NCBI GenBank assembly: GCA_023091665.1
Contig: JALJCQ010000022.1
Coordinates: forward strand, 620,001 to 684,000
Reading direction: 5' to 3'
DNA: 64,000 bases
DNA from: Pythium myriotylum
Taxonomy: Eukaryota; Oomycota; Peronosporomycetes; Pythiales; Pythiaceae
Part shown: positions 26,665 through 58,245 of the stretch, one piece after another
How the letters are laid out: every line of letters begins with the position of its first letter
How positions within the stretch are numbered: position 1 is the first letter of the stretch
Position numbers and translations under genes: made by a program
Notes under the pieces: generated by a model
Told to the model about the DNA's origin: nothing
What the model saw: the letters and a program-made list of their open reading frames with translations, nothing else
Database searches by the model: none

Positions 26665-26688
26665 CTATGGAAACTGCCTGAGTGGAAG

Positions 26689-31219: not shown

Positions 31220-34200
31220 ATGAAGCGCAAGCGTGGGACTGACAAGGGCCAGGTAGAGGGCGCAGACGAAGGGCGGCAAGACACAATCGAGACGCCGCCT
31301 GGAATTGAAGGAGAAGCTACACGGCAAGGTACGCATCAAGAAACGCCACCGCCCTCGACTTCCGCTCGACTCACGGCTCAAGATGAAGGAGATACTTCTG
31401 TCAACTCGTCAAGAAAGCTCGCTCGTGCCGGAAGCCAAGCTGAAGCCCCTGCTCGTTCGGCCTCGAAGAAGAGTGCTGGCTCACACTGGCCGGAAGGGCA
31501 GCTCAAGACGTTACGCGTCCTGTACGAGCTGAAGGACCGCAACAAGTGGACGTGGAACCGGTTCGCTGAGGAATTCAACAAGATCAACGAAGTTACCGGA
31601 CACCCATTGCGTGATGCTAATGCCTGCCGAGCTCGCTGCCAAAGAGATCCAGAGTTGAGGAAGAGTACAGAGCCCAAGCTCACCAAGTGGACGCCTGAGC
31701 AAGAAGCGTTTCAGACTGCGGAGAAGAAGGCGAAGACCTCGAACCGAGACATATATGCGAAGTATCTTGATAAGGTTCAGGCTCACGGGTGGGCATCTCG
31801 AGAATACAAGACGGTGATGACCAAGCTTTCCAGCATCTCAGAGCGAGATTCGAGTCGCAAGAGCAACCGTTCAAGCGACCAGGGGACGGCCACTGACCGA
31901 CAAACGCTGACTATGGCGCGCCGAGTATGGCATCCCGACGAAGACGCCGTATTGATGAAGGCTCTACACGCGCATAAGGACGAGGGCGCAGCTATATGTC
32001 ACGAAGCGATAGAGAGCGAGCTCCTGGCCCTCGGAGAACGAGATGGAGTACCCATTGGTGACCGCACCATTGTGACCATCAATAAACGACTGAACACCTT
32101 ACGTGATGGGAAGCCCGAAGCGACGAAGCTGCCCAGGCGGTGGACGGACAAGGACGATCAACAGATCCGTCAAGCTATGAAGCAAGAGAAGCGGAAGCGC
32201 GGACAAGCAATTAAAGAACTCTCGGCAGCGTTGGAAGTCTCCGAGTTTGCTGTGCGTCGTCGTTGGAAAGAGCTGAAAGTTATCGATAAGGAAGTCGGTG
32301 GTTCGACGGAAGAGAAGGAAGCCAGTCCAGGCCAAGGAATTCTCATCGAGCCGTTTGTGTGTGAGGCCAACCAAGGTGGTGCCACTCGGCCAGGGAAGAC
32401 CGTTGCCCACTCGGGATGCACGATGCCAAGCGCCGTATTGGCTGAGACGCTGCTGGCCCTGCGATCTGACAATGCGGAGGTCGAGAGCGTCGCCGAGAGT
32501 GGAGATGAGATCTTGTTCGAGGGCGTGAATGAAGAGTCAGATGATGACGCACCAACGAATGACCCAGTCAGACCTGATGAAGAAGACGTCGACCTTGCCG
32601 TGGCACAGGCTCTTGGCGAGGTGACGGCCATCGTGGAATATTGCAGCCAGCAAGCTAGTGAAGAGTCGAAGCAGGACACGGACCAGGGGATGAGCGGCCA
32701 AGCAGAGAATCTGCCGACGACCTTAGAGCAAGGAGACGGTGTCAGAGCGACGGATGCGGGCGAGAGCCTTGAAGACAGCGCTACGGTGACCACAGGAACT
32801 ACTAGAGAAACTCCAGCGCCTAGAGAGACTGAGACCCACGAACTGCAGGCTCCCGGAGGAAGCGTACGCGAAGGTGCCACGGACGAAACGCCTTCAATTC
32901 CAGTGTATGAAGGCGTGCCAGCAGATACAGCCGACGTTCCGATTGCTCAAGCTTCGTCCAAGGCAGACGAAGTTTCCGACCACGCACCCGAAGTGATCAG
33001 TCTGGCTACCCCATTAGTGGGCGGTGAAGACGAAGTGAACAGTCTGGAGGATTTGCCAGAGGCCACACAAGCTGGAGTGAACAGTCTGGCGGAGGTAGCG
33101 AAGGCAACTAACTTGGTCGACCTTTTAGTAGACCCTCCATCTGAAGTGATCAGTCTGGCCAAGGAACCAGTCGCCAGTCGAAGTGTAGTGAACAGTCTGG
33201 TCCCTTCCGTGGGGCACGCTCCCTCCAGCTTGGAAGACCATGCCGCTGAGAGCATCAAAGGCGGATCCCACGAGATCCGAGGACCTCAAGACCCACCACA
33301 CGCTGCGCCGATGATAGAAGAGGACGAAGTGGTGTGGCGAAATGCACACGATGGTGCACCACAATACATCACCGTCCGAATTGCTCCAGACCAATCAAGG
33401 AAAGTTCTCTCAGCCGACACATGTGATCGTTTGAGAGCAAGTGACCTCGCACCAGACTCCAAGTTGAGGATGTTCTACAAGGACAGTGAGCAGCGCGTGC
33501 AAGATATGATTGAAGGCGGCCTAGACAAAATGCGTCTTCCCGACGGTCCGGCACCCCCTGTCGACAAGTGCTTGCTGAGGGAACTAATGCTGGCCGGAAC
33601 AATCCTCTCGCGTGGCGAAGAATCGCGCGCAATATTCTTGCGGGAGATGTGGACAGACAAGTACGGAGAGTGCCGGGACAAAGACTGCTGCCTAGCGTAC
33701 GATGTGAACCGCCCGCATTTCCAGTATGAAGGCGAGTGTAGACACTGGCGATATTTCAAGATGCGACGGGTCAACTTCGACTATTTCACGAGCGTGAGAG
33801 ACTATCTGCTGGCGGGCGCGCTTGCGACGCATCTCGAGATGCTCTACGCCACTGAAGGCCCCGACTTGCCACCCATCAAGCGAGATGCGCAGTGTGTCCG
33901 GTTGAGGCTCTCAGGGGGATCGATGACTAATCAGATGTCAGGAGAATGGCCTGGCGGTGGAAGCGAAGGTGACGAACAAGGGAGCAATGGTGCAAGATCG
34001 GTGACCCATCTCCAGCCGTTGTTGTGCTCGATGACCACATTATACCTCTCTCTGGACATGACTATGGATCAGCAAGTCTGCGAAGCGCAGCTCTCGCCAT
34101 GGGATTACGGTGCGGTGGTGGCAGGCGAGAGATACTTGCACGAACGTCAGGTACTGGGTCGCGGGGTGTTGATGAGATCTGGATCCCGGTGGTTTATAGT

Positions 34201-35947: not shown

Positions 35948-36008
35948 AGACGGGTGATCCAGGTGTGCTCGCTCTTCTTCGCGGTGCTGGAGCTTCGCAG
36001 GGGACGGC

Positions 36009-36805
36009 TGTGGTATAGCGCCCCGATTCCGCGGGCATGAGTTTCTGCAAGCGCTAGGTGGCCGGTCAGGCGAAGGTGTCCACGACCAAGTCCCAAGGAA
36101 GTGATCAGTCTGGCGTACCCTTAGTACCCAAGCCAAAACGAAGTGAACAGTCAGGCGCCCAAGTCAAGATTCCGTATTCCAGACTCGGCGGTACGATTTA
36201 TCGTATTTCTCTTTATTTAGAAACCTAACATAAAAAACAGTAGGAGTAGGAACCTTATATTTGACAGATTTCAGTAGGTAGGAACGGGTGCTTACCACCC
36301 AATAACCCACGGAAAAGGGGGCGATTCTCCGCCGCTAATTCCGTGGGAGTCAGTCCACAATTTTTCCTCCTTCTCGCAGAAGCCCCCTGATCCTCCCTCA
36401 ACAGTAGCCCGTCAGTATCTCGAGGAAGTTACTAAGAGTTTCGAAGTGATCAGTCTGGTCGATCGGCCGCCTGTTTTGGGTACAGTCGCGATCCGAAGTG
36501 ATCAGTCTGGCCGAGGGCCGGGTGGTTTTGCCGGCGCTTCCTGCCAAGTTCCCCGTAGGAGTTCTCCAGGAGCTTCATCGTCTCCAAGCCGTTCTTTCTC
36601 GCTGCCTCTAGACTTGTGAGGGTCTAGTTGTAGTGTCGTGTCAGAGTTCCGGGTCTCCGCTTCAAAGAAGTTGTGATATCCGGGTCTGAAGCGAGTGTTC
36701 GAAGCACGCAAGATCCACCCCTTTCCTGAGAATATTGTTGCCGTCGGTGACTCAAGAGCGAGCCTACGTACGCCAGGTGTCCGTTTTTGATTCTGCCACA
36801 CGACA
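36009..36805 (+). repeat. 3' LTR of element A
   Basis: Begins TGTGGTATAG and ends CCACA followed by CGACA; the TGTGG/CCACA ends are inverse complements. It matches 57448-58245 and, with a few percent divergence, 42164-42954. It contains four clear copies of the GAAGTGA(T/A)CAGTCTGG motif, one of them altered to CAGTCAGG. Confidence 0.9.
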
Positions 36806-40733: not shown

Positions 40734-40740
40734 AGTTATC

Positions 40741-41598: not shown

Positions 41599-41617
41599 GT
41601 GGAGTGTCCGTTGAGCA
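41571..41617 (+). promoter_or_regulatory. -1 ribosomal frameshift signal, gag-pro of element C
   Basis: Slippery heptamer G-GGA-AAC (41571-41577) in the correct gag phase, a 5-nt spacer, then an exact 11-bp stem TGCTCAACGGA (41583-41593) / TCCGTTGAGCA (41607-41617) with a 13-nt loop that contains the gag stop. A -1 shift enters the protease frame. Confidence 0.85.
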
Positions 41618-42163: not shown

Positions 42164-42954
42164 TGTGGTATAGCGCCCCGACTCCGCGGGCATGAGTTTC
42201 TGCAAGCGCTAGGTGATCAGTCAGGCGAAGGTGTCCACGACCAAGTCCCAAGGAAGTGATTAGTCTGGCGTACCCTTAGTACCCAAGTCAAGACGAAGTG
42301 AACAGTCTGGCGCCCAAGTCAAGATTCCGTATTCCAGACTCGGCGGTACGATTTATCGTATTTCTCTTTATTTAGAAACCTAACATAAAAAACAGTAGGA
42401 GTAGGAGCCTTATATTTGACAGATTTCAGTAGGTAGGAATGGTGCTTGCCACCCAATAACCCACGGAAAGGGGGCGATTCTCCGCCGCTAATTCCGTGGG
42501 AGTCACAATTTTTCCTCCTTCTCGCAGAAGCCCCCTGATCCTCCCCTCAACAGAAGCCCGTCAGTATCTCGAGGAAGTTACTAAGAGTTTCGAAGTGATC
42601 AGTCTGGTCGATCGGCCGCCTGTTTTGGGTACTGTCGCGATCCGAAGTGATCAGTCTGGCCGAGGGCCGGGTGGTTTTGCTTGCGCTTCCTGCCAAGTTC
42701 CCCGTAGGAGATCTCCAGGAGCTTCATCGTCTCCAAGCCGTTCTTTCTCGCTGCCTCTAGACTTGTGAGGGTCTAGTTGTAGTGTCGTGTCAGAGTTTCG
42801 GGTCTCCGCTTCAAAGAAGTTGTGATATCCGGGTCTGAAGCGAGTGTTCGAAGCACGCAAGATCCACCCCTTTCCTGAGAATATTGTTGCCGTCGGTGAC
42901 TCAAGAGCGAGCCTACGTACGCCAGGTGCCCGTTTTTGATTCTGCCACACGACA
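42164..42954 (+). repeat. 5' LTR of element B
   Basis: Starts TGTGGTATAG. The inverse-complement end CCACA is at 42949 and identity with the 3' LTR extends through CGACA to 42954. It carries four copies of the GAAGTGA(T/A)CAGTCTGG motif at 42253 (one mismatch), 42295, 42592 and 42644. Confidence 0.92.
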
Positions 42955-42956
42955 AC

Positions 42957-42974
42957 TGGTGCGTATGCCAGGAG
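42957..42974 (+). other. Candidate primer-binding site
   Basis: TGGTGCGTATGCCAGG lies 2 bp after the LTR end. A leading TGG complementary to tRNA CCA ends is expected of a PBS. It overlaps the gag ATG at 42965, which is unusual, and the tRNA was not identified. Confidence 0.35.
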
Positions 42975-44935
42975 CGGAGCCGTTAGCTGTTACGATACAC
43001 GGTGAGAAGATGGAAGAGAAGGCAGAGATGCGGCAAGGTCAAGTCACAGACCCGAAGAATGTTTCGATCCGCCTCGTTGTTCAGAGCGCGGTCCATGACA
43101 CAACTCGGGTGTACCGACTGTCAGAAGCGAACGAAATCGGTCTTCGGTATCAACGACAGGTGTTGAAGATGCCGTCCGACTCAGAATGCTGGTTTTCCCT
43201 GTATGAAATTACGAAAGTAGGGCCTACGACATTCTTTGCCGGTTCGCGACTGAGGGCGTCCACCTACGACTTCGCGACGATTGACGAAGCGATTGATTTT
43301 GTGGAGAAGATGTTGACGTCATGCGGTTACAATTTGTATCGGAGAAGCAATTACCAAGATGCAGTCTACCTGAATCCAGAACGGATGGCGCAGGACATGG
43401 GCTACATGATGTCAGTTCTGCTTGCCGAGTATGAGTGGGAGACCAGCGTTATCCAATATCGGGAGGAGGACACAACGTTCGAACCGAAGTACATGGTCGT
43501 TGCTGACGTAGCCCACACTCCGCAGACCAAGCCGGCGAAGCCGCGCTCGATGAAACGTTTTGATGAAGAATCCAGCTCAGATGAAGAAATTCAGCTCGAG
43601 AGTCCAATCAGGAAGAAGCTGGAGTTTGCCAGTGATGAAGGATCCTTCTCCTCCCCCACGGACAAGATCAAGCGAAAGAATAACCCGCTGGCGACGAAGC
43701 TGATGGCGCTGACGGCCGGAGGGATGTTGTCGATGGATGAGCTATCAGAAGTGATACAAGCGCTGAGCCCAGATACCACGAAGCGAGTTGCGGCCACGCG
43801 AGCCCCGGCGAAACAGGCTCGAGGCGCTAAGAAAGGATTCGCGCGTCTAGAAGATCCCGAGTCTGACGACGGTGAACAGGACGAATCATCTGACGAAGAA
43901 GCATTCAAGCGCGTCAAGAAACCAGTCAAGAAGTCGAAGAAGCCAGTCAAGCGCAGTGCTCGCCATTCAGATATGGAAGATGAGCTCGGTCTTTCAATGT
44001 ATGAAGATTCCGACTCGGATGTGTCTGGACCTCGACGACGTGATCGACACGTGACAACGGTCATCCAGAATGTCAATGTGAAGTCGTTCAGTGGTGCCAA
44101 GGTTTTCCCGGAAGAAGCCAAGGCGTGGCTCTCGAAGTTTCTTCACATCGCTGATCTGTCCAACTGGTCCAATCGCCAACGTCTCGGTTCGTTCGTAGAC
44201 GCTCTCACGGGTCCGGCGAGGTATTGGCAGAAGCAGCTCCCTTCGTCAACGAGGAAGAAGTGGAAGCTCACGATGAAGGCCTTTTATCGAAAGTATTGCA
44301 CTGAGAGCACGCCATCTACGCTCACGTACTATCGTCTAACTCAGAAGCCCGATGAATCTGCGCTGGACTACTTCTATCGCTTTAACGCAGCAGGTCTTCG
44401 CGCGCGCATCGATTTCCGTGTAGACGACGACGATGACGAAGATCGTATCCCGGTCGATTTGAAGGATCACATTCAGCAGTTCTTCGACACGCTCCATGAC
44501 AAAGCTGTTCAGTCTCAATTCCGTTACAGCAAGTACAAGTCGATCGACAAGCTCGAGGAGAAGCTCGAGATGTACGAGAACTCTCAAGCGAAGCCAACGC
44601 CTAAGAAACAGGCCAAGAAGCAACCGGAAGAGAGCAATGACCCACCTCCTGCAGCCAGTAAGGTCAATGCAGGTCAGAGGCAGCAAGGCTCTAATGGTGG
44701 AAGTCAAGCTCATCAGACTGGTAGAAACAGCAATGAGGTCCGCTGTGAACATTGCGGCAAGTCCGGACATACTAAGGAAAGCTGCTTCCGACTTCATGAG
44801 TGTGAGTTTTGTGGAGTGACTGGTCACACGATTCAAGTCTGCCGTGGTTTCACCGAGAAGATGAAGATGCTCAGCCCAAAGCTCAAGACCGGCGGGATTA
44901 CTGTGGATGATCTCGTTCGGCAGTTAAACCGCTAG
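42965..44935 (+). CDS. Gag of element B
   Basis: 656 residues from the ATG at 42965; the frame is also open 27 codons back into the LTR. The N-terminal ~190 residues are an element-specific domain. An acidic/basic, Ser-rich linker follows (~190-370). The retrotransposon Gag core is VKSFSGAKVFPEEAKAWLSK, then WSNRQRLGSFVDALTGPARY, then YYRLTQKPDESALDYFYRF. Two CCHC knuckles follow (C-E-H-C-G-K-S-G-H-T-K-E-S-C and C-E-F-C-G-V-T-G-H-T-I-Q-V-C). It forms the particle and binds the element RNA. The stop TAG sits inside a -1 frameshift signal. Confidence 0.92.
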   Translation: MPGAEPLAVTIHGEKMEEKAEMRQGQVTDPKNVSIRLVVQSAVHDTTRVYRLSEANEIGLRYQRQVLKMPSDSECWFSLYEITKVGPTTFFAGSRLRASTYDFATIDEAIDFVEKMLTSCGYNLYRRSNYQDAVYLNPERMAQDMGYMMSVLLAEYEWETSVIQYREEDTTFEPKYMVVADVAHTPQTKPAKPRSMKRFDEESSSDEEIQLESPIRKKLEFASDEGSFSSPTDKIKRKNNPLATKLMALTAGGMLSMDELSEVIQALSPDTTKRVAATRAPAKQARGAKKGFARLEDPESDDGEQDESSDEEAFKRVKKPVKKSKKPVKRSARHSDMEDELGLSMYEDSDSDVSGPRRRDRHVTTVIQNVNVKSFSGAKVFPEEAKAWLSKFLHIADLSNWSNRQRLGSFVDALTGPARYWQKQLPSSTRKKWKLTMKAFYRKYCTESTPSTLTYYRLTQKPDESALDYFYRFNAAGLRARIDFRVDDDDDEDRIPVDLKDHIQQFFDTLHDKAVQSQFRYSKYKSIDKLEEKLEMYENSQAKPTPKKQAKKQPEESNDPPPAASKVNAGQRQQGSNGGSQAHQTGRNSNEVRCEHCGKSGHTKESCFRLHECEFCGVTGHTIQVCRGFTEKMKMLSPKLKTGGITVDDLVRQLNR

Positions 44936-44971
44936 CCCCGCAGCGCTCTGCCAGTGCTGTACGTGACGGGG
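44923..44971 (+). promoter_or_regulatory. -1 ribosomal frameshift signal, gag-pol of element B
   Basis: Slippery heptamer G-TTA-AAC (44923-44929) in gag phase, 6-nt spacer containing the gag stop, then a stacked stem: CCCCG (44936-44940) with CGGGG (44967-44971), enclosing CAGCGC (44941-44946) with GTGCTG (44954-44959, one G-U). The -1 frame is open into the pol ORF, which has no ATG start of its own near its beginning. Confidence 0.8.
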
Positions 44972-44985
44972 ACGTCGCGGCGACT

Positions 44986-47900
44986 TTGCATGTGAAGAAG
45001 ATCCGGCGCAAATCGAAGAAATACCAGAAACAAAAGGCGCCTTACATTGATGAAGAAAGTGTTCACGTGGAAAATGGAGCGAAGAAACATGAAGAAAGAA
45101 GTTATGATGACACTGTGCATGAAGAACGAAACGTGTATGAAGATACAGTCAAGGATGTCACGCTACCTGCGGTGTTTGAATCGGTAGTGTCGACTGTGGA
45201 TGAGAAACAAGAAGAAACAAGTGATGGAAACTGTGTATGTGAAGATGTATATATGAGAGAAGCAGTTGGTGATGAAGATGAAGAGTTGCATGTGCTATGG
45301 TGCCCAATTGAGCCAATTGAAGAAGGTGATGAGGGCGCTTGCGACAAAGATGCTGATGAAGAAGATATGAAGATGCCAAATGGTGCTCGAGATATATCTC
45401 TGCAAAGAAAGGTAACTCACATTCGTCTCGTTGGTGATGAACGACGAGGGTGGTGGAAGAACCACGAATTGTCAACGAACGAGAAGATACAAGCCTTCGT
45501 GCATGGTGCTGTTGAAGGACTCGAGATTCCGTTGATGCTGGATTCGGGAGCGAACATCAGTCTGTTACAAACCAACTTGGCACGTAAGTTGGGGTTGAGA
45601 GTGCGGGCGTTCGAGGACTCGAGTGAATTCTTCGGTGTGAGCGAGGAACCGATGCAAGCACACGGAAAGGTCGTGGTGAAGATCCGGCTGGGAGAGTTCG
45701 TGGTGTACGAAGTCGAGATGTGGGTGGCTGAGTTTGAAGCTCACTCGTTAATTATTCTCGGCACCGACTTCATGATGTGCGCTGGGCTGAAGATCGACTT
45801 GGGCAAGAAGCGGTGTGAAGTGCCTGACGAAGATGCGTTGCCGCTGCTGAGTTATGATGATCTGCGCTGTGAGGCGTATGCGGCTTCGTATGACGCGGTG
45901 CGCTTGGCTGTGAAGATGCCGCTCCTGCGTGGCAGCGACGTTGCTGTGCTGGTTGCTGGGGAGACCCGCCTCGAAGTGATCGGTCTGGAGTCGAGCAAAG
46001 GAGGGGCCACTAAAGAGGCGAGTACGGAGCCGAATAGAGGCGCGGTCACCGAAGCGATCAGTCTGGCGGAATGTCTCAATCATGAAGAGGCCGAAGTGAT
46101 CAGTCTGGTCCAGGGCAGAGCGGGAGCAACTGAAGTGAACAGTCTGGCGGGTGAGCGAGCGTCTTCCCAGGTTTGCATGCTGGACGAACCCCCCCCCCCC
46201 CCCCCCCCCCCTGAAGATCTGGATCAGTCGAAGTTTGCAAGAGAAGTCTACGTCCATGAGGGGGTAGAGATGTCAGTTGAGAGCATGAAAGAGCAGCTTG
46301 CGTTGCTACCTGAGTTTGACGAGGCCCCGCTGGTGGAAGTCGACATGAGTGAAGCTGACATCGGCGACGAGGAGACGACGGCCGAGGAGATTGAGATGAT
46401 CAGAGAAACGTTGGAAGCAAGGTCCGCTAGCTTTATTAGCTCCGGGAACGCTCTACCGCCGCCAGCGAAAGGAGTCGTGTGTGGCGTGGACGTCGGGGAC
46501 GCGAAGCCGATCGCTCAAGCCGCGAGACGAGTGCCGCCGCACCTGCTGGGAAGATTGTATGAGTTACTGCGCGGCCTTCTCCGACAAGGTTTGATAAGAT
46601 ATTCGAACTCACCATGGGCATCACCGATCGTCATTGTGCTGAAGAAGAACGGGAAAGACATCCGCCTTTGCATCGACTATCGTCTGGTGAATCGACTAAC
46701 GAAGCTGATGGTGTACGCGATGCCACTGATAGATGATCTGCTCGACAATTTTGAAGGGATCATGTGGTTTTGCTCCTTGGATAATGCGAGCGGATTCTGG
46801 GCTGTACCTTTAACGGTCCGCGCGCGACTTGTGACTGCATTTATATGCCCGCTCGGACACTTCGAATGGACGAGGATGCCTCAAGGGTTGAAGAATGCCC
46901 CACAGATCTACCAGCGCATGATTGATAACGCGCTGTGGAGCATGGTGAGACGACTCAGCAACCGTGATGTGAGATTCAAGGCTGTCGGGTGGACGGAGGA
47001 CGAGTTAGATGACATGGAGGCCCAACGAGAGAAGGAGCGCATCGACATTGACGTACCGCTGAAGCGAGACGTATTTCATCGAGGTGAGCCACAGGAGTCG
47101 GATGTACTGCCGGTGATCAAGCGCCGATCATACATTGATGATATCACCTTTGGGGCAACGACGTGGTCGGAGATGAACGTGATGCTGCAGTGTCTGCTCG
47201 ATGCATTTCAATACTGGGGAGTGACTGTGAGTTTGCGGAAGAGTTCGTTTGGAAAAAAGTCAGTTGAGTTCCTCAGTCACGTGATCTCGCGAGAAGGGTT
47301 GATGAGCGCCCCAAGAAACCTCGAGTCGATCAGGCAGATGCCGTTTCCGTCGACGCAGAAAGGGTTGCAGCGATTCATCGGCAGCCTGATTTATTACCAC
47401 AAGTTTATCAGCAACTTTGCGACTTATGCGGCAGTCCTGTATGAGGTCACTGACCTGAGACTGAGAGATGGGAGCCAACTTGATCATGCAAAGAGAGCCT
47501 TCGAAGAACTGAAGATGAAGCTATGCGACGCGCCTCTTCTGCGCCATGTTGAACGCGGACGAGAGCTTGTTATAGTGCTGTACACGAACAAGTGGGCTTT
47601 CGGAGCATCAGTTTGCCAAGAGCACGACGGGATTCTACATCCAGTTCGATTTGTGAGTAAAGTTTTCAAGGATGCAGAGACTCGGTATACGCCTGCAGAA
47701 CAAGAAGTGTTAGCTCTGCTGAAGACGCTCCACGTCGCGAGTCACTACCTGCTCGGCCAACCGATTGTAGTGTACGCGAGATACTCTACCATGAAGTGGG
47801 TCTTCACGTCGAAGAGTCTGACCGGTCGTACCATCCAGTGGGCCGCCATGTTGTCGCCATGGAGCTTGACAATTATTCGAAGCGATGAGACTCCCGCCGG

Positions 47901-48006
47901 TTTGATGGCAGTGTTGGCAGCATCGATAACACCTGCAGAACAAATGGATGCAATACTCGAAGACATCGCGCCGATGAAGACAATTAAAGATATACCAGTC
48001 ATTTGA
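44986..48006 (+). CDS. Pol part 1 of element B: protease, reverse transcriptase, degenerate RNase H
   Basis: The ~1,006-codon frame is open back past the gag stop and its first in-frame M-equivalent codon is TTG, so it is expressed by the -1 frameshift. Aspartic protease: LMLDSGANISL (Asp ~186) and IILGTDFM. A 23-base C run encodes eight prolines between protease and RT. RT: SPWASPIVIVLKKNGKDIRL, MPQGLKNAPQIYQ and the catalytic YIDD (~716). The Gypsy-type RNase H starts V-L-Y-T-N-K-W-A-F-G-A, where the first catalytic Asp is Asn (~868), so it is probably a non-catalytic tether. A single TGA at 48004 separates it from the second RNase H in the same frame. Confidence 0.92.
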   Translation: MHVKKIRRKSKKYQKQKAPYIDEESVHVENGAKKHEERSYDDTVHEERNVYEDTVKDVTLPAVFESVVSTVDEKQEETSDGNCVCEDVYMREAVGDEDEELHVLWCPIEPIEEGDEGACDKDADEEDMKMPNGARDISLQRKVTHIRLVGDERRGWWKNHELSTNEKIQAFVHGAVEGLEIPLMLDSGANISLLQTNLARKLGLRVRAFEDSSEFFGVSEEPMQAHGKVVVKIRLGEFVVYEVEMWVAEFEAHSLIILGTDFMMCAGLKIDLGKKRCEVPDEDALPLLSYDDLRCEAYAASYDAVRLAVKMPLLRGSDVAVLVAGETRLEVIGLESSKGGATKEASTEPNRGAVTEAISLAECLNHEEAEVISLVQGRAGATEVNSLAGERASSQVCMLDEPPPPPPPPEDLDQSKFAREVYVHEGVEMSVESMKEQLALLPEFDEAPLVEVDMSEADIGDEETTAEEIEMIRETLEARSASFISSGNALPPPAKGVVCGVDVGDAKPIAQAARRVPPHLLGRLYELLRGLLRQGLIRYSNSPWASPIVIVLKKNGKDIRLCIDYRLVNRLTKLMVYAMPLIDDLLDNFEGIMWFCSLDNASGFWAVPLTVRARLVTAFICPLGHFEWTRMPQGLKNAPQIYQRMIDNALWSMVRRLSNRDVRFKAVGWTEDELDDMEAQREKERIDIDVPLKRDVFHRGEPQESDVLPVIKRRSYIDDITFGATTWSEMNVMLQCLLDAFQYWGVTVSLRKSSFGKKSVEFLSHVISREGLMSAPRNLESIRQMPFPSTQKGLQRFIGSLIYYHKFISNFATYAAVLYEVTDLRLRDGSQLDHAKRAFEELKMKLCDAPLLRHVERGRELVIVLYTNKWAFGASVCQEHDGILHPVRFVSKVFKDAETRYTPAEQEVLALLKTLHVASHYLLGQPIVVYARYSTMKWVFTSKSLTGRTIQWAAMLSPWSLTIIRSDETPAGLMAVLAASITPAEQMDAILEDIAPMKTIKDIPVI
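46189..46211 (+). repeat. Poly-C tract of 23 bases inside the pol ORF
   Basis: Encodes the P8 run between the protease and RT. Length is compatible with an open frame. A one-base slip would cut RT off from protease. Confidence 0.92.
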
Positions 48007-50622
48007 CCCTTCCCTGATCTACGAAGAAATGCAGACGGATACGTGCTCACGTTCGATGGGGCAGTCAAGTTGAAGGGTACCCGGTCTGGCACGTTTGGTA
48101 TGATCCTATGGAAACTGCCTGAGTGGAAGGTGGTTGCCGCGGAATATGATGTGAAGGAAGGGCTTACCGTGAACGACAGTGAATATCACGGCCTGCTCGG
48201 CGCACTCGAACTGGCAACGACGCAGGGTATCAAGGAGGTGCTCGTGTGTGGCGACTCCCGCCTGGTAATCGGGCAGGTAAACGGTGACCTTCGGTGCAAT
48301 CAAGCGTCGCTACAAGTCTGGCCGAATCGGGCGAAAGAGCAGCTCACCTTGTTCGACAGTGTGAGTTTCATTCACATCGCGCGTAAGTACAACCAGGCGG
48401 CAGACTTCCTCACCAGGGAGGCCATGCGATCCCAGTCGAGAGGCTCGGTCACTGATGATGCGCGCTTGCACGACTTGGAGCTTTTGAACACTCTCCCGGA
48501 GTTGTTGTACCGCGTGGATGATGAACACGTGTACGAAGGAAAGCTGGAGGCGGAACCGGGGGCCACTATAATGGTAAGGCGAGTTGACCAGTCTGGCCAC
48601 AAGACCGAGCCAAATTCAGGTCAACTGATCAGTCTGGAGTCGACTACCACCCGTGCAGAGCCAAGCGAACAGTCTGGTGAAGAATCGCAGTCAACGTTGG
48701 AAGAGAAGAGCGAACTCGCGCCAGTCAGGGTGGTGAGCGGGAGCCAGGTGGCGAGATTGCATGACGGTCCAAGCTACGAAGTGTTTGTTGTCGACACGAG
48801 GAAGCGGACGAGGTCGAAGAAGGAGAGCCACACGAAGAAGCAAAAAGAAGGGTCGAACGCAGCTGACATTGGGACATTCGAGGATGATGGATCAAAGCCG
48901 GCCAGAGAATGGACACCATTGCATGTGAGCGGGGAGATGCTAAGTCAAGCTCAGGTGGAGAGGTTCCGACGAGTGGCGGCAGCGCAACGCCGAGATGAAT
49001 GGTGCAAGCAGGTAATCGCGTATCTCGAGGGCAATGAGGAGGAGTTCTCTTCGTCGACCGCGCTCAAGCGGGTAGCGCGGATCGCTGTCCTATATGTGCT
49101 CGATTCAGATGGGGTGTTGTACTACTCCCCCCAAGGAGGGAAATCGGAAGCTTTGAAGGTGCGATTGGTAGTGCCGGACACTCTGCAGAAAGATTTATTA
49201 TGCGCCTATCATGAAGAACTCGGGGCTGGTGCACACCAAGGTGTGGGGCGTGTGTTCGAGCGAATGCGCCGTCTATACTACTGGAGAGGCATGTATGCGG
49301 ATGTAGAATGGTATGTTGCCTCGTGTGAAGACTGCGCCACTGCGAAGGGCAAGCCCCGATACAAAGGTCGGTCCAGTGGCAATATTGTCGCGACCAGGCC
49401 ATTTCAGGTGCTCGCTATGGATTTCGCGATTCCCCTCCCCAAGACGTACAACGGAAATGAAGCCATCCTCTGTTGCATTTGCCTCTTCTCAGGTTTTGTG
49501 ATTCTCATTCCGATGGCCGACACGACAGCGCAATCCGTTGCAGAGGCGTATTTGAGTGGGGTGTTCAAGCGATTTGGGGCCCAGGAAATGATTCGACACG
49601 ACCGCGACCCGCGCTTCATGAGTTCTGTGTTCAAGCGATTCAACCGCATGATGAATCAGAAGCAGCGCCCGACACTAGCTTATCGACCGCAAGCGAATGG
49701 AAAACAGGAACGTTCTGTGCAGACTGTGGTGAGGGCGATCAAGTGCTATATTGCTGATGCGGAGCAGAAGGACTGGGATGAATATGTTCAGCAGCTTGAG
49801 TTGGCCCTCAACACGTCAGTGAGTCTACAGCACAAGCAGACTAGTTTTTATCTGGTGCATGGCTGGGATGCACGAACGCAACTAGAAGCAGCGATTCCCC
49901 CCAAGGATGGCACGCTCAAGGAACGAAACGCACTTGAATGGCGGCAGAAAATTGCAAAGCAGCATGAACAAGCCCAGGCGCACGCCGAATTTATTCAGCA
50001 GAAATTAATGGAAGAACGTGCGAGGAAGAACAACGAGCAGGCCGACGAGAATCTGCAGTCGACGGTGAGAACGGAGTATCAGCCAGGTGAGCTTGTGTGG
50101 CTGTATCACGTTTTGGTCAAGGAAGGACTCGTGAGGAAGCTATCGCACCTGTGGCATGGTCCATATCAGATAGAAGAGCGTGTCAGTGAGTCGGTGTACA
50201 AGCTAAAGTTCGATCGGAGCGAGAATCAAGTCATGCCGATGATCCATATCTCCCGGCTCAAGCCATTCGTCTCAAGGATGCGGAGGCCACGTGAAAAGAT
50301 TGAGAGCATTCAAGACCTCGAGTTGGACGAAGCTCTATTGCCTGAGGATTCGTGGTACGAAGAAGGTGTTGATGACGAATATGAGGTGGAGAAGGTGGTC
50401 GACTGCCGATATAAGAAGCGGACGAGGAACGGTAGACGAATGCGCGAGTACTTGATCAAATGGGTCGGTCACGAGGAGCCTACATGGGAGCCGGAAGAGA
50501 ATCTACACTGCAACGCTCTGCTATACGAGTTCGACGCAAGACGGGCATGGGAGAACCGCAAGGAGGCCGCTCAAACTACTCATGAGGAAGAGGTCGATGA
50601 GAGTGATTCGAGTGACGAGTAG
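48007..50622 (+). CDS. Pol part 2 of element B: archaeal-type RNase H, integrase, chromodomain
   Basis: In the same frame as part 1 after one TGA. There is no ATG near the start (the first M-equivalent is GTG), which points to UGA readthrough (UGA followed by C) or a single inactivating mutation. The second RNase H keeps all acidic residues: TFDGAVKLKG, NDSEYHGLLGALE, CGDSRLVIG and NQAADFL. The integrase finger and D,D,E triad (VLAMDFA, RHDRDPRF, GKQERSV) are intact. The C-terminal chromodomain has VDCRYKKRTRNG, YLIKWVGHEEPTWEPEENL. A motif-containing, poorly conserved linker separates RNase H from integrase. Confidence 0.9.
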   Translation, partial: PFPDLRRNADGYVLTFDGAVKLKGTRSGTFGMILWKLPEWKVVAAEYDVKEGLTVNDSEYHGLLGALELATTQGIKEVLVCGDSRLVIGQVNGDLRCNQASLQVWPNRAKEQLTLFDSVSFIHIARKYNQAADFLTREAMRSQSRGSVTDDARLHDLELLNTLPELLYRVDDEHVYEGKLEAEPGATIMVRRVDQSGHKTEPNSGQLISLESTTTRAEPSEQSGEESQSTLEEKSELAPVRVVSGSQVARLHDGPSYEVFVVDTRKRTRSKKESHTKKQKEGSNAADIGTFEDDGSKPAREWTPLHVSGEMLSQAQVERFRRVAAAQRRDEWCKQVIAYLEGNEEEFSSSTALKRVARIAVLYVLDSDGVLYYSPQGGKSEALKVRLVVPDTLQKDLLCAYHEELGAGAHQGVGRVFERMRRLYYWRGMYADVEWYVASCEDCATAKGKPRYKGRSSGNIVATRPFQVLAMDFAIPLPKTYNGNEAILCCICLFSGFVILIPMADTTAQSVAEAYLSGVFKRFGAQEMIRHDRDPRFMSSVFKRFNRMMNQKQRPTLAYRPQANGKQERSVQTVVRAIKCYIADAEQKDWDEYVQQLELALNTSVSLQHKQTSFYLVHGWDARTQLEAAIPPKDGTLKERNALEWRQKIAKQHEQAQAHAEFIQQKLMEERARKNNEQADENLQSTVRTEYQPGELVWLYHVLVKEGLVRKLSHLWHGPYQIEERVSESVYKLKFDRSENQVMPMIHISRLKPFVSRMRRPREKIESIQDLELDEALLPEDSWYEEGVDDEYEVEKVVDCRYKKRTRNGRRMREYLIKWVGHEEPTWEPEENLHCNALLYEFDARRAWENRKEAAQTTHEEEVDESDSSDE

Positions 50623-52648
50623 AGAGTGACCTGGCGAAGTGACCAGTCTGGTGTGAGAAGGTGCTCGGCGAAGGGACCAAGTGAACAGTCTGGCCGGAGC
50701 GAGGTCACAAGAATGAGGGGACGAGACTGAAGGTGCGCGGCGAGGTGATGCGGAGCGCCGCGACTGAAGGAGAGACGCTGAGGAAGGAAAGATGATGAGG
50801 AGAAGGAGAAGAAGAAAGAGCTGAATCGAAGTACAGCTCTATAGTGACCTGACGCGGATCGAATACGTGGTAAGGTCAAGTTCTGGGGTTGAAAGGTGGA
50901 TCAAACCCACTGTACAGCCCTGCGATGGAATCCGGCGCCGGGGGCCCAAGTTGGCTGCGGAATGCTGAGGTGCGGACCCGAGTTGGTTGCACAAGAAATC
51001 GCGAAGTTGACATGTGATGAACAAGTTTCAAGGAGCTACATTTTGTGGTGAGCGCATTCTGCCATGGGTATGCGGTGGATGCATCAAGAATGAATATTGT
51101 ATTGTTGACATGGAAGCTACAAGCCTTAGGCGGTGCCAGTGCACTGGGTTGACCGAAAGGGGCTACGTCTTGACACGGAGACTGTCCGGCGAGACGACAA
51201 TTGAGGCGATGTGGTGGGCGAGGTGGCGAGTGAAGCGCATGTTTGGAATCTGGCTGTCTGATCAACTACCGGACGAAGAACAGAAGCGAGCGCACGCACG
51301 TGTCAGCGAAAGTGGTGATCTGCTGTTGAGCCTGATCAGCGAAGCAGTATGGGAAGCGCGGACGTTGACCACCCCTGTCGTAGAAGCCTTAGAAAGAAAC
51401 GAGAGAGTTAGGAGGACTCGGAGCGGATCGAACCCGCCGAGAGAAACAAGCGAGTTGAGACGGTTTGACGCGGACTGAATCCGCCAAGAAGCCGCGGCGT
51501 TGTCGAACTGAAGGGCTCATTCGAGTGGATCAGTCTTGATGCGCCGGTTGAGAGGGATGAGGTGATGCAGCGGAGAGAGGAGAGAGGAAGCGTCTGTGCA
51601 TGTGCGAAGAAAATGGTGAAAATGAGGTGACTGATGACAAGCGAGATGTGATCGACGAGGAGGCCCGTGCGCCAGAGAGGAACGAAGCGGTATGGATGTC
51701 AGAGAGGAAGAGCGCACCTTTGTAGTGTGGCGCGGCCTGCGTTGATGATGTGAAGATGACTGGGGACGACTCGAACTCGTAGGGCGAAGCGCGGTGACGA
51801 ATGGCGCCGGAGGCAAGAGACCTGTTTGGTTGATGAGTGGTGCGACTTGGCTTTAAATACTGGACCCAAGGGAAGCGAAGTGATCAGTCTGGCCAGGCTT
51901 GTTAGGGATCGGTCTGGTCGGTTTCGGTGAAGTGATCAGTCTGGTCACCATGAGGGGAAGGATCAGTCGAAATCGGTGTCTATGACGGTGAACGCAAGTG
52001 AAGGAGCAGAAACGGTGTGTGAACATGGCTATTCGTCTTATCCGAATGATGGCAGCGCCTATGAGTACGTGTCCGCTGTGGTCGACAACGGCTTGACAGA
52101 GCGCGGGCGGCGCTGGCATGGAGGGTGAGAAAAAAGCGTTAGCAGCCGTCAACAAATCGATGTTCTTCGCCGACGATAATTACCTTGGACGACGTTAAGG
52201 GACTGTGTGAACTTGGAGCAGCAAGCGGGAGTGATCATGGAAGGAGATGGCAGCGCGGGTGGAGGCCGAGAACGAGCGGCGGGCTTGGCGCACCAAGGCG
52301 CGTCGAGAAACTTCAGGCTCGATCAAGAAATGGGAGAGGCCGGCCTTCTAACCATCCCAGCCAGAGGACCAAGTACGCACTGAAGGGTTTACGCGAACCT
52401 AACGGCCCCAGGTGAAGTGATCAGTCTGGCGGACGAGGTGGAGGTCCCTGAAACGGAAGTGAACAGTCTGGTTGGTGAGGATCCAGCCCCGACGTCTAAG
52501 AACGTATAAGAACGTGTAAGAAGGGGAGAGCTCGATTGAAGCGTCAAGAAACTTCCACTGCGAACGAGGAAATCAAGTGAGTTGAACAGTCTGGCGGAGA
52601 CACCCTATCGAGGCCGGCGCGAAGTGATCAGGTCTGGCGGACGGAACA
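50623..52648 (+). other. Non-coding spacer between pol and helicase ORF (element B)
   Basis: Same content as 29182-31219: motif copies at about 50636, 50678, 51877, 51929, 52414, 52456, 52581 and 52621, a TTTAAATA string near 51853, and the 154-codon unassigned frame at 51014-51478. Confidence 0.55.
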
Positions 52649-55600
52649 ATGGCAGCTGGCATGAAGCGCAAGCGTGGGACTGACAAGGGCCAGGTAGAGG
52701 GCTCAGACGAAGGGCGGCAAGACACAATCGAGACGCCGCCTGGAATTGAAGGAGAAGCTACACGGCAAGGTACGCATCAAGAAACGCCACCGCCCTCGAC
52801 TTCCGCTCGACACACGGCTCAAGATGAAGGAGATACTTCTGTCAACTCGTCAAGAAAGCTCGCTCGTGCCGGAAGCCAAGCTGAAGCCCCTGCTCGTTCG
52901 GCCTCGAAGAAGAGTGCTGGCTCACACTGGCCGGAAGGGCAGCTCAAGACGTTACGCGTCCTGTACGAGCTGAAGGACCGCAACAAGTGGACGTGGAACC
53001 GGTTCGCTGAGGAATTCAACAAGATCAACGAAGTTACCGGACACCCATTGCGTGATGCTAATGCCTGCCGAGCTCGCTGCCAAAGAGATCCAGAGTTGAG
53101 GAAGAGTACAGAGCCCAAGCTCACCAAGTGGACGCCTGAGCAAGAAGCGTTTCTGACTGCGGAGAAGAAGGCGAAGACCTCGAACCGAGACATATATGCG
53201 AAGTATCTTGATAAGGTTCAGGCTCACGGGTGGGCATCTCGAGAATACAAGACGGTGATGACCAAGCTTTCCAGCATCTCAGAGCGAGATTCGAGTCGCA
53301 AGAGCAACCGTTCAAGCGACCAGGGGACGGCCACCGACCGACAAACGCTGACTATGGCGCGCCGAGTATGGCATCCCGACGAAGACGCCGTATTGATGAA
53401 GGCTCTACACGCGCATAAGGACGAGGGCGCAGCTATATGTCACGAAGCGATACAGAGCGAGTTCCTGGCCCTCGGAGAACGAGATGGAGTACCCATTGGT
53501 GACCGCACCATTGTGGCCATCAATAAACGACTGAACACCTTACGTGATGGGAAGCCCGAAGCGACGAAGCTGCCCAGGCGGTGGACGGACAAGGACGATC
53601 AACAGACCCGTCAAGCTATGAAGCAAGAGAAGCGGAAGCGCGGACAAGCAGTTAAAGAACTCTCGGCAGCGTTGGAAGTCTCCGAGTTTGCTGTGCGTCG
53701 TCGTTGGAAAGAGCTGAAAGTTATCGATAAGGAAGTCGGTGGTTCGACGGAAGAGAAGGAAGCCAGTCCAGGCCAAGGAATTCTCATCGAGCCGTTTGTG
53801 TGTGAGGCCAACCAAGGTGGTGCCACTCGGCCAGGGAAGACCGCTGCCCACTCGGGATGCACGATGCCAAGCGCCGTATTGGCTGAGACGCTGCTGGCCC
53901 TGCGATCTGACAATGCGGAGGTCGAGAGCGTCGCCGAGAGTGGAGATGAGATCTTGTTCGAGGGCGTGAATGAAGAGTCAGATGATGACGCACCAACGAA
54001 TGACCCAGTCAGACCTGATGAAGAAGACGTCGACCTTGCCGTGGCACAGGCTCTTGGCGAGGTGACGGCCATCGTGGAATATTGCAGCCAGCAAGCTAGT
54101 GAAGAGTCGAAGCAGGACACGGACCAGGGGATGAGCGGCCAAGCAGAGAATCTGCCGACGACCTTAGAGCAAGGAGACGGTGTCAGAGCGACGGATGCGG
54201 GCGAGAGCCTTGAAGACAGCGCTACGGTGACCACAGGAACTACTAGAGAAACTCCAGCGCCTAGAGAGACTGAGACCCACGAACTGCAGGCTCCCGGAGG
54301 AAGCGTACGCGAAGGTGCCACGGACGAAACGCCTTCAATTCCAGTGTATGAAGGCGTGCCAGCAGATACAGCCGACGTTCCGATTGCTCAAGCTTCGTCC
54401 AAGGCAGACGAAGTTTCCGACCACGCACCCGAAGTGATCAGTCTGGCTACCCCATTAGTGGGCGGTGAAGACGAAGTGAACAGTCTGGAGGATTTGCCAG
54501 AGGCCACACAAGCTGGAGTGAACAGTCTGGCGGAGGTAGCGAAGGCAACTAACTTGGTCGGCCTTTTAGTAGACCCTCCATCTGAAGTGATCAGTCTGGC
54601 CAAGGAACCAGTCGCCAGTCGAAGTGTAGTGAACAGTCTGGTCCCTTCCGTGGGGCACGCTCCCTCCAGCTTGGAAGACCATGCCGCTGAGAGCATCAAA
54701 GGCGGATCCCACGAGATCCGAGGACCTCAAGACCCACCACACGCTGCGCCGATGATAGAAGAGGACGAAGTGGTGTGGCGAAATGCACACGATGGTGCAC
54801 CACAATACATCACCGTCCGAATTGCTCCAGACCAATCAAGGAAAGTTCTCTCAGCCGACACATGTGATCGTTTGAGAGCAAGTGACCTCGCACCAGACTC
54901 CAAGTTGAGGATGTTCTACAAGGACAGTGAGCAGCGCGTGCAAGATATGATTGAAGGCGGCCTAGACAAAATGCGTCTTCCCGACGGTCCGGCACCCCCT
55001 GTCGACAAGTGCTTGCTGAGGGAACTAATGCTGGCCGGAACAATCCTCTCGCGTGGCGAAGAATCGCGCGCAATATTCTTGCGGGAGATGTGGACAGACA
55101 AGTACGGAGAGTGCCGGGACAAAGACTGCTGCCTAGCGTACGATGTGAACCGCCCGCATTTCCAGTATGAAGGCGAGTGTAGACACTGGCGATATTTCAA
55201 GATGCGACGGGTCAACTTCGACTATTTCACGAGCGTGAGAGACTATCTGCTGGCGGGCGCGCTTGCGACGCATCTCGAGATGCTCTACGCCACTGAAGGC
55301 CCCGACTTGCCACCCATCAAGCGAGATGCGCAGTGTGTCCGGTTGAGGCTCTCAGGGGGATCGATGACTAATCAGATGTCAGGAGAATGGCCTGGCGGTG
55401 GAAGCGAAGGTGACGAACAAGGGAGCAATGGTGCAAGATCGGTGACCCATCTCCAGCCGTTGTTGTGCTCGATGACCACATTATACCTCTCTCTGGACAT
55501 GACTATGGATCAGCAAGTCTGCGAAGCGCAGCTCTCGCCATGGGATTACGGTGCGGTGGTGGCAGGCGAGAGATACTTGCACGAACGTCAGGTACTGGGT

Positions 55601-57386
55601 CGCGGGGTGTTGATGAGATCTGGATCCCGGTGGTTTATAGTCACGAACGCGAGTATCACGTCAGCCCAACCAAGCAGACTCGATTTAATGTGGGTTCCGA
55701 GGACAAGTCTATTGAACTACGTGCGACGTTTCCTGGCGATAGACCAAGCGGCATCGCGACCTACGCCGCTCGTCGCAGCGCTTGCCATGCGGGACATGCA
55801 TCAGAAGGAACGCCCGCGACCTCAACAGACCCGAGCGAAGAGAGTGAGGATGTGGACGAAGTCGCTATTCCTGAGACCAAGCCAAATGAGAGTGGTCGAG
55901 GAATTTGTTACGAAGACTGGCATCATGCTAGTGCGCGGCCCGTTTGGCTGCGGCAAGACGACGACATTGACGCGCGCGATATCTGTCCACCGTGAGGCGT
56001 ACCCCAAGGAAGTGATTGCAGTCGTGTCTGAAACGAACGCCGCGATTGATGAAGACCTCCGACGGCTCCGGCAGAAGAACCTAGTGCCCGAAGATGAAAT
56101 ATTGAGGCTCGGAAAGTGTGATGCTCACATGCAAGAGTTTGCAGGGATCTACCTCGACGAACTCATGAAGAAAAGACGGGCGTTAATAGAACGGATATAC
56201 CCTGACCGGCCCGACATGGTGGCATCCGAAATGAAGAAGTACGAAGACCATTTGCTAGCTCGAGCGAAGGTCCTTGTCGCCACATTAGCGACAATGGGGA
56301 GTGCGAAATATCAGCATCTAGCGAATCACGTGGTGATCATCGACGAAGGCGCGCAGGTTGCAGAAGCCGCGGTGATCCAAGCTCTTCGCGAAGATACGCA
56401 CACGCTGCTACTAGCAGGGGACCCCAATCAGCTGCGGGGGTACAGCTCGCTGCCGACAAATTTCGCTGAGAGGTTCCCCGGCGATGAGAGACGGCACAAG
56501 CTCAATTGGTCTGTGTTCCACACGTTCGAGCATTGTTACGCGTCTTACGGCATGAAGTTCCCGGGGCTAACGACGGAGGACATTTTTCGGTGTGGACCAG
56601 ATTTGGTGACACTATTGCAACCCTTTTACGACTACCCGCTGCGCTCCGCTATCAGCAACACTCCAGGATATCTAGTTGGGATGCTGCTACCGCCTCTGCA
56701 GGATGACGCAAGTTGGTCTAGGGATGGAATCGAGAACGGACCGCCCCTGCCTCGAGGACCGTCTGCAATATGGCTCGACTCGGGCAACGAAGGTTTTCAC
56801 CCTGACGGGCGACGGAAATCTGCGAGCGAGGAGAAGTTTGTGAATGTGATTGAACAAGCGCTGGTGATGGAACTGATCATGCGGATCAAGGCGCAACTCA
56901 AACTGCAATCCAAGATGACGCACAGAGTGTGGCGCAAGAGTATCCTAGTTATCTCCCCTTACGCGGAGCAGGTCAAGAGATTAAAGGAAGATGCTCTACA
57001 GTGGAAAAATCTCTACGAGAATTTCCTAGACGTAGAAGTGAAGACTGTGGACTCAAGCCGGGTGCGAAGCTGACATTACGATCACCTTGATGGTGCGTCA
57101 CGTGAAAATGGGATTCTTGAAGAATAACCCCTCGCGATTGCTGGTGTCCCTGAGTCGTGCCAAGGAGTACATGTTCGTTCTCGCAGATGACCAGACTCTC
57201 GCTCAAGACAGCACGTGGGCGAAATTCCGCCAACAAGCGATTGACATGAGGATCACGTACGGGAGGTCGAGATGGACGCCAGAGGAAGCCGGCGCTGTGT
57301 TGAAAGACAAGGACCACATGAGGAAGCTGGCCAGCGCTAACGACTCGAGAGTCATTGGCGACGCCCAAAACGCAGTGCTGCTGTAA
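52649..57386 (+). pseudogene. Myb/SANT and SF1 helicase ORF of element B, frameshifted in helicase motif V
   Basis: Nearly identical to the intact ORF at 31220-35947. It starts four codons earlier because ACG in copy A is ATG here. A 2-bp deletion near 57059, at the codons of the S-S-Q-G motif, shifts the frame and stops translation at 57073 (1,474 codons). The remaining ~100 codons with motif VI continue in another frame to 57386. The truncated product would keep the Myb-like repeats and Walker motifs but lose motifs V and VI, so helicase activity is probably lost. Confidence 0.9.
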
Positions 57387-57447
57387 AGACGGGTGATCCA
57401 GGTGTGCTCGCTCTTCTTCGCGGTGCTGGAGCTTCGCAGGGGACGGC

Positions 57448-58245
57448 TGTGGTATAGCGCCCCGATTCCGCGGGCATGAGTTTCTGCAAGCGCTAGGTGG
57501 CCGGTCAGGCGAAGGTGTCCACGACCAAGTCCCAAGGAAGTGATCAGTCTGGCGTACCCTTAGTACCCAAGCCAAAACGAAGTGAACAGTCTGGCGCCCA
57601 AGTCAAGATTCCGTATTCCAGACTCGGCGGTACGAGTTATCGTATTTCTCTTTATTTAGAAACCTAACATAAAAAACAGTAGGAGTAGGAGCCTTATATT
57701 TGACAGATTTCAGTAGGTAGGAACGGGTGCTTACCACCCAATAACCCACGGAAAAGGGGGCGATTCTCCGCCGCTAATTCCGTGGGAGTCAGTCCACAAT
57801 TTTTCCTCCTTCTCGCAGAAGCCCCCTGATCCTCCCCTCAACAGTAGCCCGTCAGTATCTCGAGGAAGTTACTAAGAGTTTCGAAGTGATCAGTCTGGTC
57901 GATCGGCCGCCTGTTTTGGGTACAGTCGCGATCCGAAGTGATCAGTCTGGCCGAGGGCCGGGTGGTTTTGCCTGCGCTTCCTGCCAAGTTCCCCGTAGGA
58001 GTTCTCCAGGAGCTCCATCGCCTTCAAGCCGTTCTTTCTCGCTGCCTCTAGACTTGTGAGGGTCTAGTTGTAGTGTCGTGTCAGAGTTTCGGGTCTCCGC
58101 TTCAAAGAAGTTGTGATATCCGAGTCTGAAGCGAGTGTTCGAAGCACGCAAGATCCACCCCTTTCCTGAGAATATTGTTGCCGTCGGTGACTCAAGAGCG
58201 AGCCTACGTACGCCAGGTGTCCGTTTTTGATTCTGCCACACGACA
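57448..58245 (+). repeat. 3' LTR of element B
   Basis: Starts TGTGGTATAG, with CCACA at 58236-58240 followed by CGACA. It is closer to the LTR of element A than to the 5' LTR of element B. Preceded by the weakly purine-rich GCAGGGGACGGC, the only polypurine-tract candidate. Confidence 0.92.

What the first reader, a model, noticed from the sequence alone, without database searches (positions are those of the whole stretch)
42253..57950. About 30 one-stranded copies of GAAGTGA(T/A)CAGTCTGG across the element
Sixteen exact and over ten near copies of a 16-mer occur in the LTRs, the 2-kb spacer, the pol linkers and the helicase linker, all on the sense strand, and none in conserved enzyme cores. 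Most coding copies read EVISL/EVNSL, but those at 48581 and 48664 are read in another frame. The nucleic acid, not a peptide, therefore seems to be conserved. One position is T or A. No such motif was seen in the host part of the window.
Basis: seen in the sequence. Interest (0 to 1): 0.88.

Follow-up and report, generated by a model that had tools for sequence, protein, structure and literature searches.

The report
Retrotransposon's own paired address tags
A 16-kb jumping gene carries 28 exact or near copies of one 16-letter DNA word, all on one strand and mostly in pairs about four or five turns of the double helix apart, and a distant relative carries a different word of its own; the words are likely docking sites for each element's own DNA-binding protein, which would let the element mark itself, possibly to resist silencing.

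Summary
In detail: 16 exact and 12 near copies of GAAGTGA(T/A)CAGTCTGG lie in a Ty3/gypsy element (LTRs 42164-42954 and 57448-58245), all on the sense strand, none in an enzyme domain. A second, partial copy at 26665-36805 carries about 20 more.
(1) Sites come mostly in pairs about 42 or 52 bp apart, and the T/A letter tracks pair type: pairs near 42 bp are mostly T then A, never A then T; 52-bp pairs are T,T in 29 of 29.
(2) Against 11 other copy labels the sites differ 2.5% per base, neighbouring 16-bp windows 7.7%; no indels in sites.
(3) Related families in this genome have other words: GTTARCACTCTGR (42-bp pairs) in a near family, TGACAGTGATCR (51/52-bp pairs, both strands, two frames) in a far one.
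(4) The extra ORF has four likely Myb-type repeats plus an SF1 helicase.
Best reading: double-stranded DNA sites for the element's own Myb-helicase protein, a VANC/VANDAL-like self-address system in an LTR retrotransposon. Binding and anti-silencing are inferred, not shown. Three other relatives showed no array at the sensitivity used.

The parts
42164..42954 (+). 5' LTR (TG...CA) with five sites: 42210 (weak), 42253, 42295, 42592, 42644
   Evidence: 96.7% identical to the 3' LTR
42839..44935 (+). gag ORF, stop to stop (its start overlaps the 5' LTR; no sites)
   Evidence: Pfam Retrotrans_gag
44911..48006 (+). protease - RT - RNase H ORF; sites 45973, 46051, 46093, 46132 in the protease-RT linker
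48007..50622 (+). second RNase H (RVT_3) - integrase - chromodomain ORF; sites 48581, 48622, 48662 in the RNaseH-integrase linker, in two frames
50623..52627 (+). non-coding spacer with pairs 50636/50678 (42 bp), 51877/51929 (52 bp), 52414/52456 (42 bp) and site 52579
52628..57073 (+). ORF2, stop to stop: four Myb-like repeats, linker, SF1 (AAA_11/AAA_12) helicase
52913..53722 (+). four 52-65-residue Myb-like repeats of ORF2 (likely DNA-binding part)
   Evidence: weak to moderate
54431..54641 (+). ORF2 linker array: sites 54431, 54473, 54515, 54584, 54626
57448..58245 (+). 3' LTR with sites 57537, 57579, 57883, 57935
26665..36805 (+). second, 5'-truncated copy of the same element with about 20 sites

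Best explanation
The element carries an array of same-strand 16-bp words, mostly in pairs, that are likely double-stranded DNA binding sites for its own ORF2 protein (four predicted Myb-like repeats joined to an SF1 helicase), which would use them to recognise and mark the whole 16-kb element. SHOWN: the sites, their strand, pairing near 42 and 52 bp, the T/A pair code, conservation above neighbouring DNA in coding and spacer parts, different words with the same kind of spacing in related families, and use of a word in several frames and, in one family, on both strands. LIKELY: that ORF2's N-terminal part is a Myb-type DNA-binding array. INFERRED: that it binds these sites; that spacing in near-whole helix turns lets two bound molecules sit on one face of DNA; that word and protein co-evolve; and that the purpose is to keep the element's chromatin open (VANC-like anti-silencing), since site clusters recur along the element at intervals of 0.3-3.3 kb and not only at the promoter.
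For: Strand: 275 sites on +, 0 on - in 22 pieces from 13 copy labels. Constraint: 23 sites at 0.025 differences per base against 0.077 in 276 control windows, indels in 0 against 7.8% of cells, same direction in 5 of 5 compartments. Pair code: of 112 pairs at 39-43 bp, T>A 74, T>T 17, A>A 12, C>T 5, C>A 4, A>T 0; of 29 pairs at 51-52 bp, T>T 29. Spacer DNA is close to random (0.30-0.33 against 0.256), so pairing is not plain tandem duplication. Far family: 23 copies of TGACAGTGATCR in 10 kb (30 Markov controls 0-6), 10 on + and 13 on -; with gaps of 25-55 allowed genome-wide, 31 of 31 pairs sit at 51 or 52 bp, reversed control 0. Near family: 7 sites of GTTARCACTCTGR in 17 kb (30 controls 0-4); with gaps of 20-50 allowed, 11 of 11 genome pairs sit at 42 bp, reversed control 3. 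Twenty-seven hand-entered spacings of the three families cluster at period 10.5 (P = 0.00005). ORF2 repeats: a profile of 11 repeats from three families has Myb proteins as its three best PDB matches (E 0.006, 0.028, 0.037). ORF2 is 22% identical to the C3 relative in the repeat part and 31% over linker and helicase.
Against: No binding or chromatin data. Pfam gives no significant Myb match (best E 0.16). The AlphaFold models are weak (pLDDT 48 and 68), and the best Foldseek E is 0.8. Two relatives with a helicase match (L034, L037) and one picked by its RT (L035) show no word above Markov controls, and the near family's word does not stand out without prior knowledge. In the near family's second locus (C3) 4 of 5 weak-threshold sites are on the sense strand and 1 is not. 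With the weak site 42210 included the LTR sites differ hardly less than their flanks (0.050 against 0.058). One-strandedness in the window's family also fits an RNA function. The 42-bp and 51-bp spacings are multiples of 3, so coding pairs alone would not prove helical phasing; the mean phase differs between families (0, -0.5 and -2.1 bp).
Confidence: 0.52

Rival explanations
1. The words are sites for the element's own ORF2 protein, but for another job: nuclear gathering of element DNA, choice or avoidance of integration sites, or transcription, with no role in silencing.
For: Same evidence for own-protein sites as above; sites also sit in the LTRs, and a chromodomain integrase and an SF1 helicase are present.
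Against: A purely transcriptional or integration role would not obviously need arrays in the pol linkers, spacer and ORF2 linker (inference).
Confidence: 0.17
2. The words are sites for a host DNA-binding protein (activator, insulator or repressor), as Su(Hw) binds the Drosophila gypsy insulator (recalled).
For: A host factor could also give 42/52-bp phasing.
Against: The genome holds 487 matches against 1 for the reversed control; the listed places that I checked fall almost only in this family, and none lies in 24 kb of host DNA in the window. Families in one genome carry different words, which a fixed host factor does not predict.
Confidence: 0.15
3. The words act in the RNA: packaging, export or processing signals read by gag or by the helicase.
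For: All 275 sites found in 22 pieces of this family are on the sense strand; ORF2 has an SF1 helicase.
Against: The far family's word lies on both strands (10 and 13). Spacings differ by about one B-DNA turn (42 and 51/52). No Rfam match in 42100-58300.
Confidence: 0.1
4. The words are by-products: a spreading minisatellite, or a conserved peptide EVISL/EVNSL.
For: In the window element 10 of 12 coding sites share the frame that gives E-V-I/N-S-L or a variant of it; spacer identity is slightly above random.
Against: 16 of 28 sites are non-coding (LTR or spacer); two frames are used; conservation stops at the 16 bases; spacers are not repeats of each other; the far family reads DSDR-like or MTVI.
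Confidence: 0.03

Closest known systems
VANC / VANDAL anti-silencing system of Arabidopsis (PMC5735166, passages read incl. abstract; PMC10398659, abstract and outline read)
   Same: A transposon-encoded protein is paired with a short word dense only in its own family, arrayed in one orientation; the word occurs in two letter types (there C- and T-type) and differs between related families.
   Different: VANDALs are Mutator-like DNA transposons (recalled; PMC5735166 passages call them VANDAL TEs); VANC has other domains (DUF1985 is named in a legend). VANC sites lie mainly in non-coding tandem repeats, whereas here they also lie in coding linkers, are not plain tandem repeats, and form pairs at 42/52-bp spacing. 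Binding is shown there, not here.
Chronos Ty3/gypsy elements of oomycetes (PMC5348765, abstract and passages read)
   Same: Dual RNase H and a chromodomain after integrase.
   Different: The main text of that paper holds the word helicase 0 times; no extra Myb-helicase ORF or repeated word appears in the passages read.
gypsy insulator with Su(Hw) sites, Drosophila (recalled, no call)
   Same: A cluster of short protein-binding sites in an LTR retrotransposon.
   Different: One cluster bound by a host protein; not spread over the element.
Retrotransposons with accessory SF1 helicase domains (PMC6338049, passages read)
   Same: An SF1 helicase carried by a retrotransposon.
   Different: Those are virus-type helicases in insect LINE-like elements; here it is a separate ORF with Myb-like repeats in an LTR element.

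Membership tests
Chronos (oomycete Ty3/gypsy) | Two RNase H domains after RT | tested here: met
   RT_RNaseH at 885-982 of one ORF and RVT_3 at 16-138 of the next
Chronos (oomycete Ty3/gypsy) | Chromodomain 3' of integrase | tested here: met
   PF00385 at 792-844, E 1.8e-10
Chronos (oomycete Ty3/gypsy) | RT groups with Chronos on a tree | not tested
   no tree made
VANC/VANDAL | Short word dense in its own family, in one orientation | tested here: met
VANC/VANDAL | Related families carry different words | tested here: met
   (two other words; three further relatives without a detected word)
VANC/VANDAL | Mutator-like transposon with VANC-type protein | tested here: not met
   LTR element with gag-pol and a Myb-like/helicase ORF; so not a member, only similar in how it may work
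VANC/VANDAL | Protein binds the word and removes silencing marks | not testable with these tools
   needs binding and chromatin data
Myb/SANT DNA-binding proteins | Significant match to a Myb/SANT profile | tested here: inconclusive
SF1 helicases (AAA_11/AAA_12) | Pfam match above cut-off | tested here: met
   AAA_11 E 1.2e-23, AAA_12 E 2.2e-07, both above cut-off

The most novel reading that the evidence does not exclude
This is a self-address system in an LTR retrotransposon: a paired-site code (T-site and A-site 42 bp apart, or two T-sites one helix turn further) written through LTRs, linkers and spacer, read by the element's own four-repeat Myb helicase, and rewritten as a set when a family splits, so that each family opens only its own chromatin. 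It would be a convergent, class I and non-plant counterpart of VANC, with an unwinding motor in place of VANC.
Probability: 0.38. Interest if true: 0.92.

Novelty: new variant of a known kind. Interest (0 to 1): 0.8.

Why it matters
Sequence-specific self-recognition by a transposon-encoded protein is known from Arabidopsis VANDAL elements. Finding word arrays with fixed spacing, and different words in related families, in LTR retrotransposons of another eukaryotic lineage would suggest that such systems arise repeatedly. It would also give an open question a direct test: whether a transposon protein and its scattered sites evolve as lock and key. The word and spacing are explicit enough to test with a few oligonucleotides.

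Tried and rejected
Peptide conservation (EVISL): rejected, since spacer sites are as constrained as coding ones and frames differ.

Tandem-repeat origin: seven 26-base spacers compared with each other and with the next 26 bases were close to random. They are slightly above random, so an old tandem origin of some pairs is not excluded.

RNA family: no Rfam match in 42100-58300 at gathering thresholds.

Homologues in the large protein database: ORF2 gave none at E <= 0.001 among the 7,990 candidates scored.

Arrays in other relatives: 11-mer discovery in L034, L035 and L037 (each 9-10 kb, parts of loci picked by a helicase match or, for L035, by a 72%-identical RT) found nothing above 10 Markov controls. 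The near family (L029, L030, L031) also showed nothing above controls without prior knowledge; a second locus of the far family (L036) showed 7 against a control maximum of 6. Six and a half kb of a 52%-RT element with no helicase match near it (L038) had none.

Isolated genome matches: only the first 100 places of 487 were listed. Of four isolated loci that I picked from that list and fetched, three are LTR relics at about 86% identity and one (C13:2261590) is a lone word with no element around it. I did not assign the remaining places one by one.

Rows dropped: site 42210 was left out. Site 57035 (3 mismatches) fails the matrix threshold. The word with a one-base insertion near 52622 and the shorter word near 51906 were not counted. 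One spacing of 123 bp was left out of the 27. One of 12 repeat segments (far family, second) was left out of alignment A1. Choosing sites by the window copy lowers their apparent divergence slightly.

Literature: searches (listings only) showed no title or abstract start reporting this ORF or word; others returned no paper. VANC was found; one search was a listing only.

Full report
WHAT WAS CLAIMED AND WHAT IS THERE. The window lies in a 58.7-Mb, 55-contig genome with no name given. The element at 42164-58245 has LTRs of 791 and 798 bp, 96.7% identical, with TG...CA ends. Its order is gag, protease-RT-RNase H, second RNase H-integrase-chromodomain, a 2-kb spacer, and a further ORF (ORF2) ending in an SF1 helicase. 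All 28 are on the sense strand; none is on the other strand or in the first 24 kb of host DNA. The sites lie in ten clusters at intervals of 297-3329 bases, outside Pfam enzyme domains. A second, truncated copy lies at 26665-36805.

SPREAD IN THE FAMILY. The genome has 487 matches at up to one mismatch (354 and 133 by contig strand) against 0 and 1 for the reversed word; 100 places were listed. I fetched 20 pieces under 11 further copy labels, of which C9a and C9b may be parts of one disrupted copy. With the two window copies, which are a segmental duplication of each other, 22 pieces hold 275 sites on the element's sense strand and 0 on the other; one piece (L024) holds none.

CONSTRAINT. For 23 sites, each compared with up to 11 copies, the mean difference is 0.025 per base. 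In 276 random 16-base windows of the same compartments it is 0.077; none of 20,000 bootstraps reached the site value. Indels occur in 0% against 7.8% of cells. In one search, which also used the window's second copy and the weak site 42210, the values were 0.022 against 0.079 (coding), 0.020 against 0.068 (spacer) and 0.050 against 0.058 (LTR); the LTR contrast thus depends on leaving out 42210. The profile by position is low over the 16 bases and back at flank level next to them.

PAIRS AND THE T/A CODE. Of 173 neighbour distances under 130 bases, 79 are 42, 33 are 39-43 other than 42, 28 are 52 and 33 are other. In 112 pairs at 39-43 bp the eighth base runs T>A 74, T>T 17, A>A 12, C>T 5, C>A 4 and never A>T. 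In 29 pairs at 51-52 bp it is T>T every time. Many of these cases are the same pair in different copies, so they are not independent events. Spacer sequences are near random in identity (mean 0.33 between pairs and 0.30 to the following bases, against 0.256), which speaks against simple tandem duplication.

OTHER FAMILIES, OTHER WORDS. Searches with the helicase and RT found relatives in the same genome. In the near family (66-73% DNA identity in four aligned gag-pol stretches; RT protein 80%) the word is GTTARCACTCTGR. Locus B has 7 sites in 17 kb, 7 of 7 on the sense strand, against 0-4 in 30 Markov controls; locus C3 has 4 on the sense strand and 1, with two mismatches, on the other. B's sites fall in the same kinds of place (RNaseH-integrase linker, spacer, ORF2 linker, 3' part), though the linkers hardly align. 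With the gap left free from 20 to 50, 11 of 11 pairs in the genome sit at 42 bp (reversed control 3); these come from only two contexts. In the far family (helicase 33% identical) the word is TGACAGTGATCR. There are 23 sites in 10 kb, 10 on + and 13 on -, against 0-6 in 30 controls; unguided discovery finds it too, 21 against a control maximum of 5. With gaps of 25-55 allowed, 31 of 31 genome pairs sit at 51 or 52 bp (reversed control 0), in five distinct sequence contexts by my reading; by chance that is about (2/31) to the fifth power, my arithmetic (one search printed the sixth power). Its ten sites inside ORF2 read DSDR-like in six cases and MTVI in two, and two lie on the minus strand. 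No word stood out in L034, L035 or L037.

DNA OR RNA. Spacings of 42 and 51/52 bp are close to four and five turns of B-DNA. Over 27 hand-entered spacings of the three families the 10.5-bp periodicity has R = 0.61, P = 0.00005 against uniform spacings of 30-110; mean phases are -0.5, 0 and -2.1 bp by family. The far family's use of both strands also argues for DNA. The multiples-of-three objection does not cover the non-coding pairs at 42, 51 and 52 bp.

THE LIKELY READER. ORF2 begins with four repeats of 52-65 residues with a nearly invariant tryptophan. A profile of 11 of 12 such segments from three families finds MYB21, c-Myb repeat 3 and MYB3 as its best PDB matches (E 0.006, 0.028, 0.037), and 12 of 25 listed matches are Myb-type by my count. 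Pfam gives no significant match, and structure models are weak. I therefore call the region likely Myb-type. Against the C3 relative the repeat part is 22% identical and the linker-helicase part 31%. No homologue was found in the large protein database.

READING. I take the words as binding sites of the element's own Myb-helicase protein, probably acting like VANC, whose sites are also same-orientation arrays that differ between related families (PMC5735166, passages). Membership in VANC fails (wrong element class and protein), so this is similarity of working only. The backbone matches Chronos in two tested features. Binding, co-operation on one helix face, co-evolution and anti-silencing remain inferences. 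That the host is an oomycete is likely, from the Chronos-type architecture and from effector-like neighbours that I recognise from memory.

Noticed in passing
window 26665-58245 and contig C22 about 650-864 kb: The element sits in a unit of about 21.4 kb repeated several times on this contig in both orientations: Myb-region and LTR matches recur at about 21.4-kb steps.
   Followed up: partly
window 26549-26603: A pair of the near family's word (42 bp apart) lies just upstream of the truncated copy, so a piece of the near family (likely LTR) abuts it.
   Followed up: partly
window 37842-39674, 59282-61114, 61832-63664: Three closely similar 610-residue open frames lie beside the element; from memory they resemble Crinkler-type effector genes. 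Not studied.
   Followed up: no
window 40696-42173: Another retroelement's gag/protease-like open frames (my reading) end where the 5' LTR begins; no matching target-site duplication flanks the element.
   Followed up: partly
L033 8503-8579: In the far family, near its likely 3' LTR, two words face each other 14 bp apart, twice, 51 bp apart: an inverted pair that I did not see in the window's family.
   Followed up: no
L042 (C13:2261100-2262100), minus strand: One exact word with no element around it, the only one of four isolated loci fetched that is not an LTR relic.
   Followed up: partly
   Followed up: no
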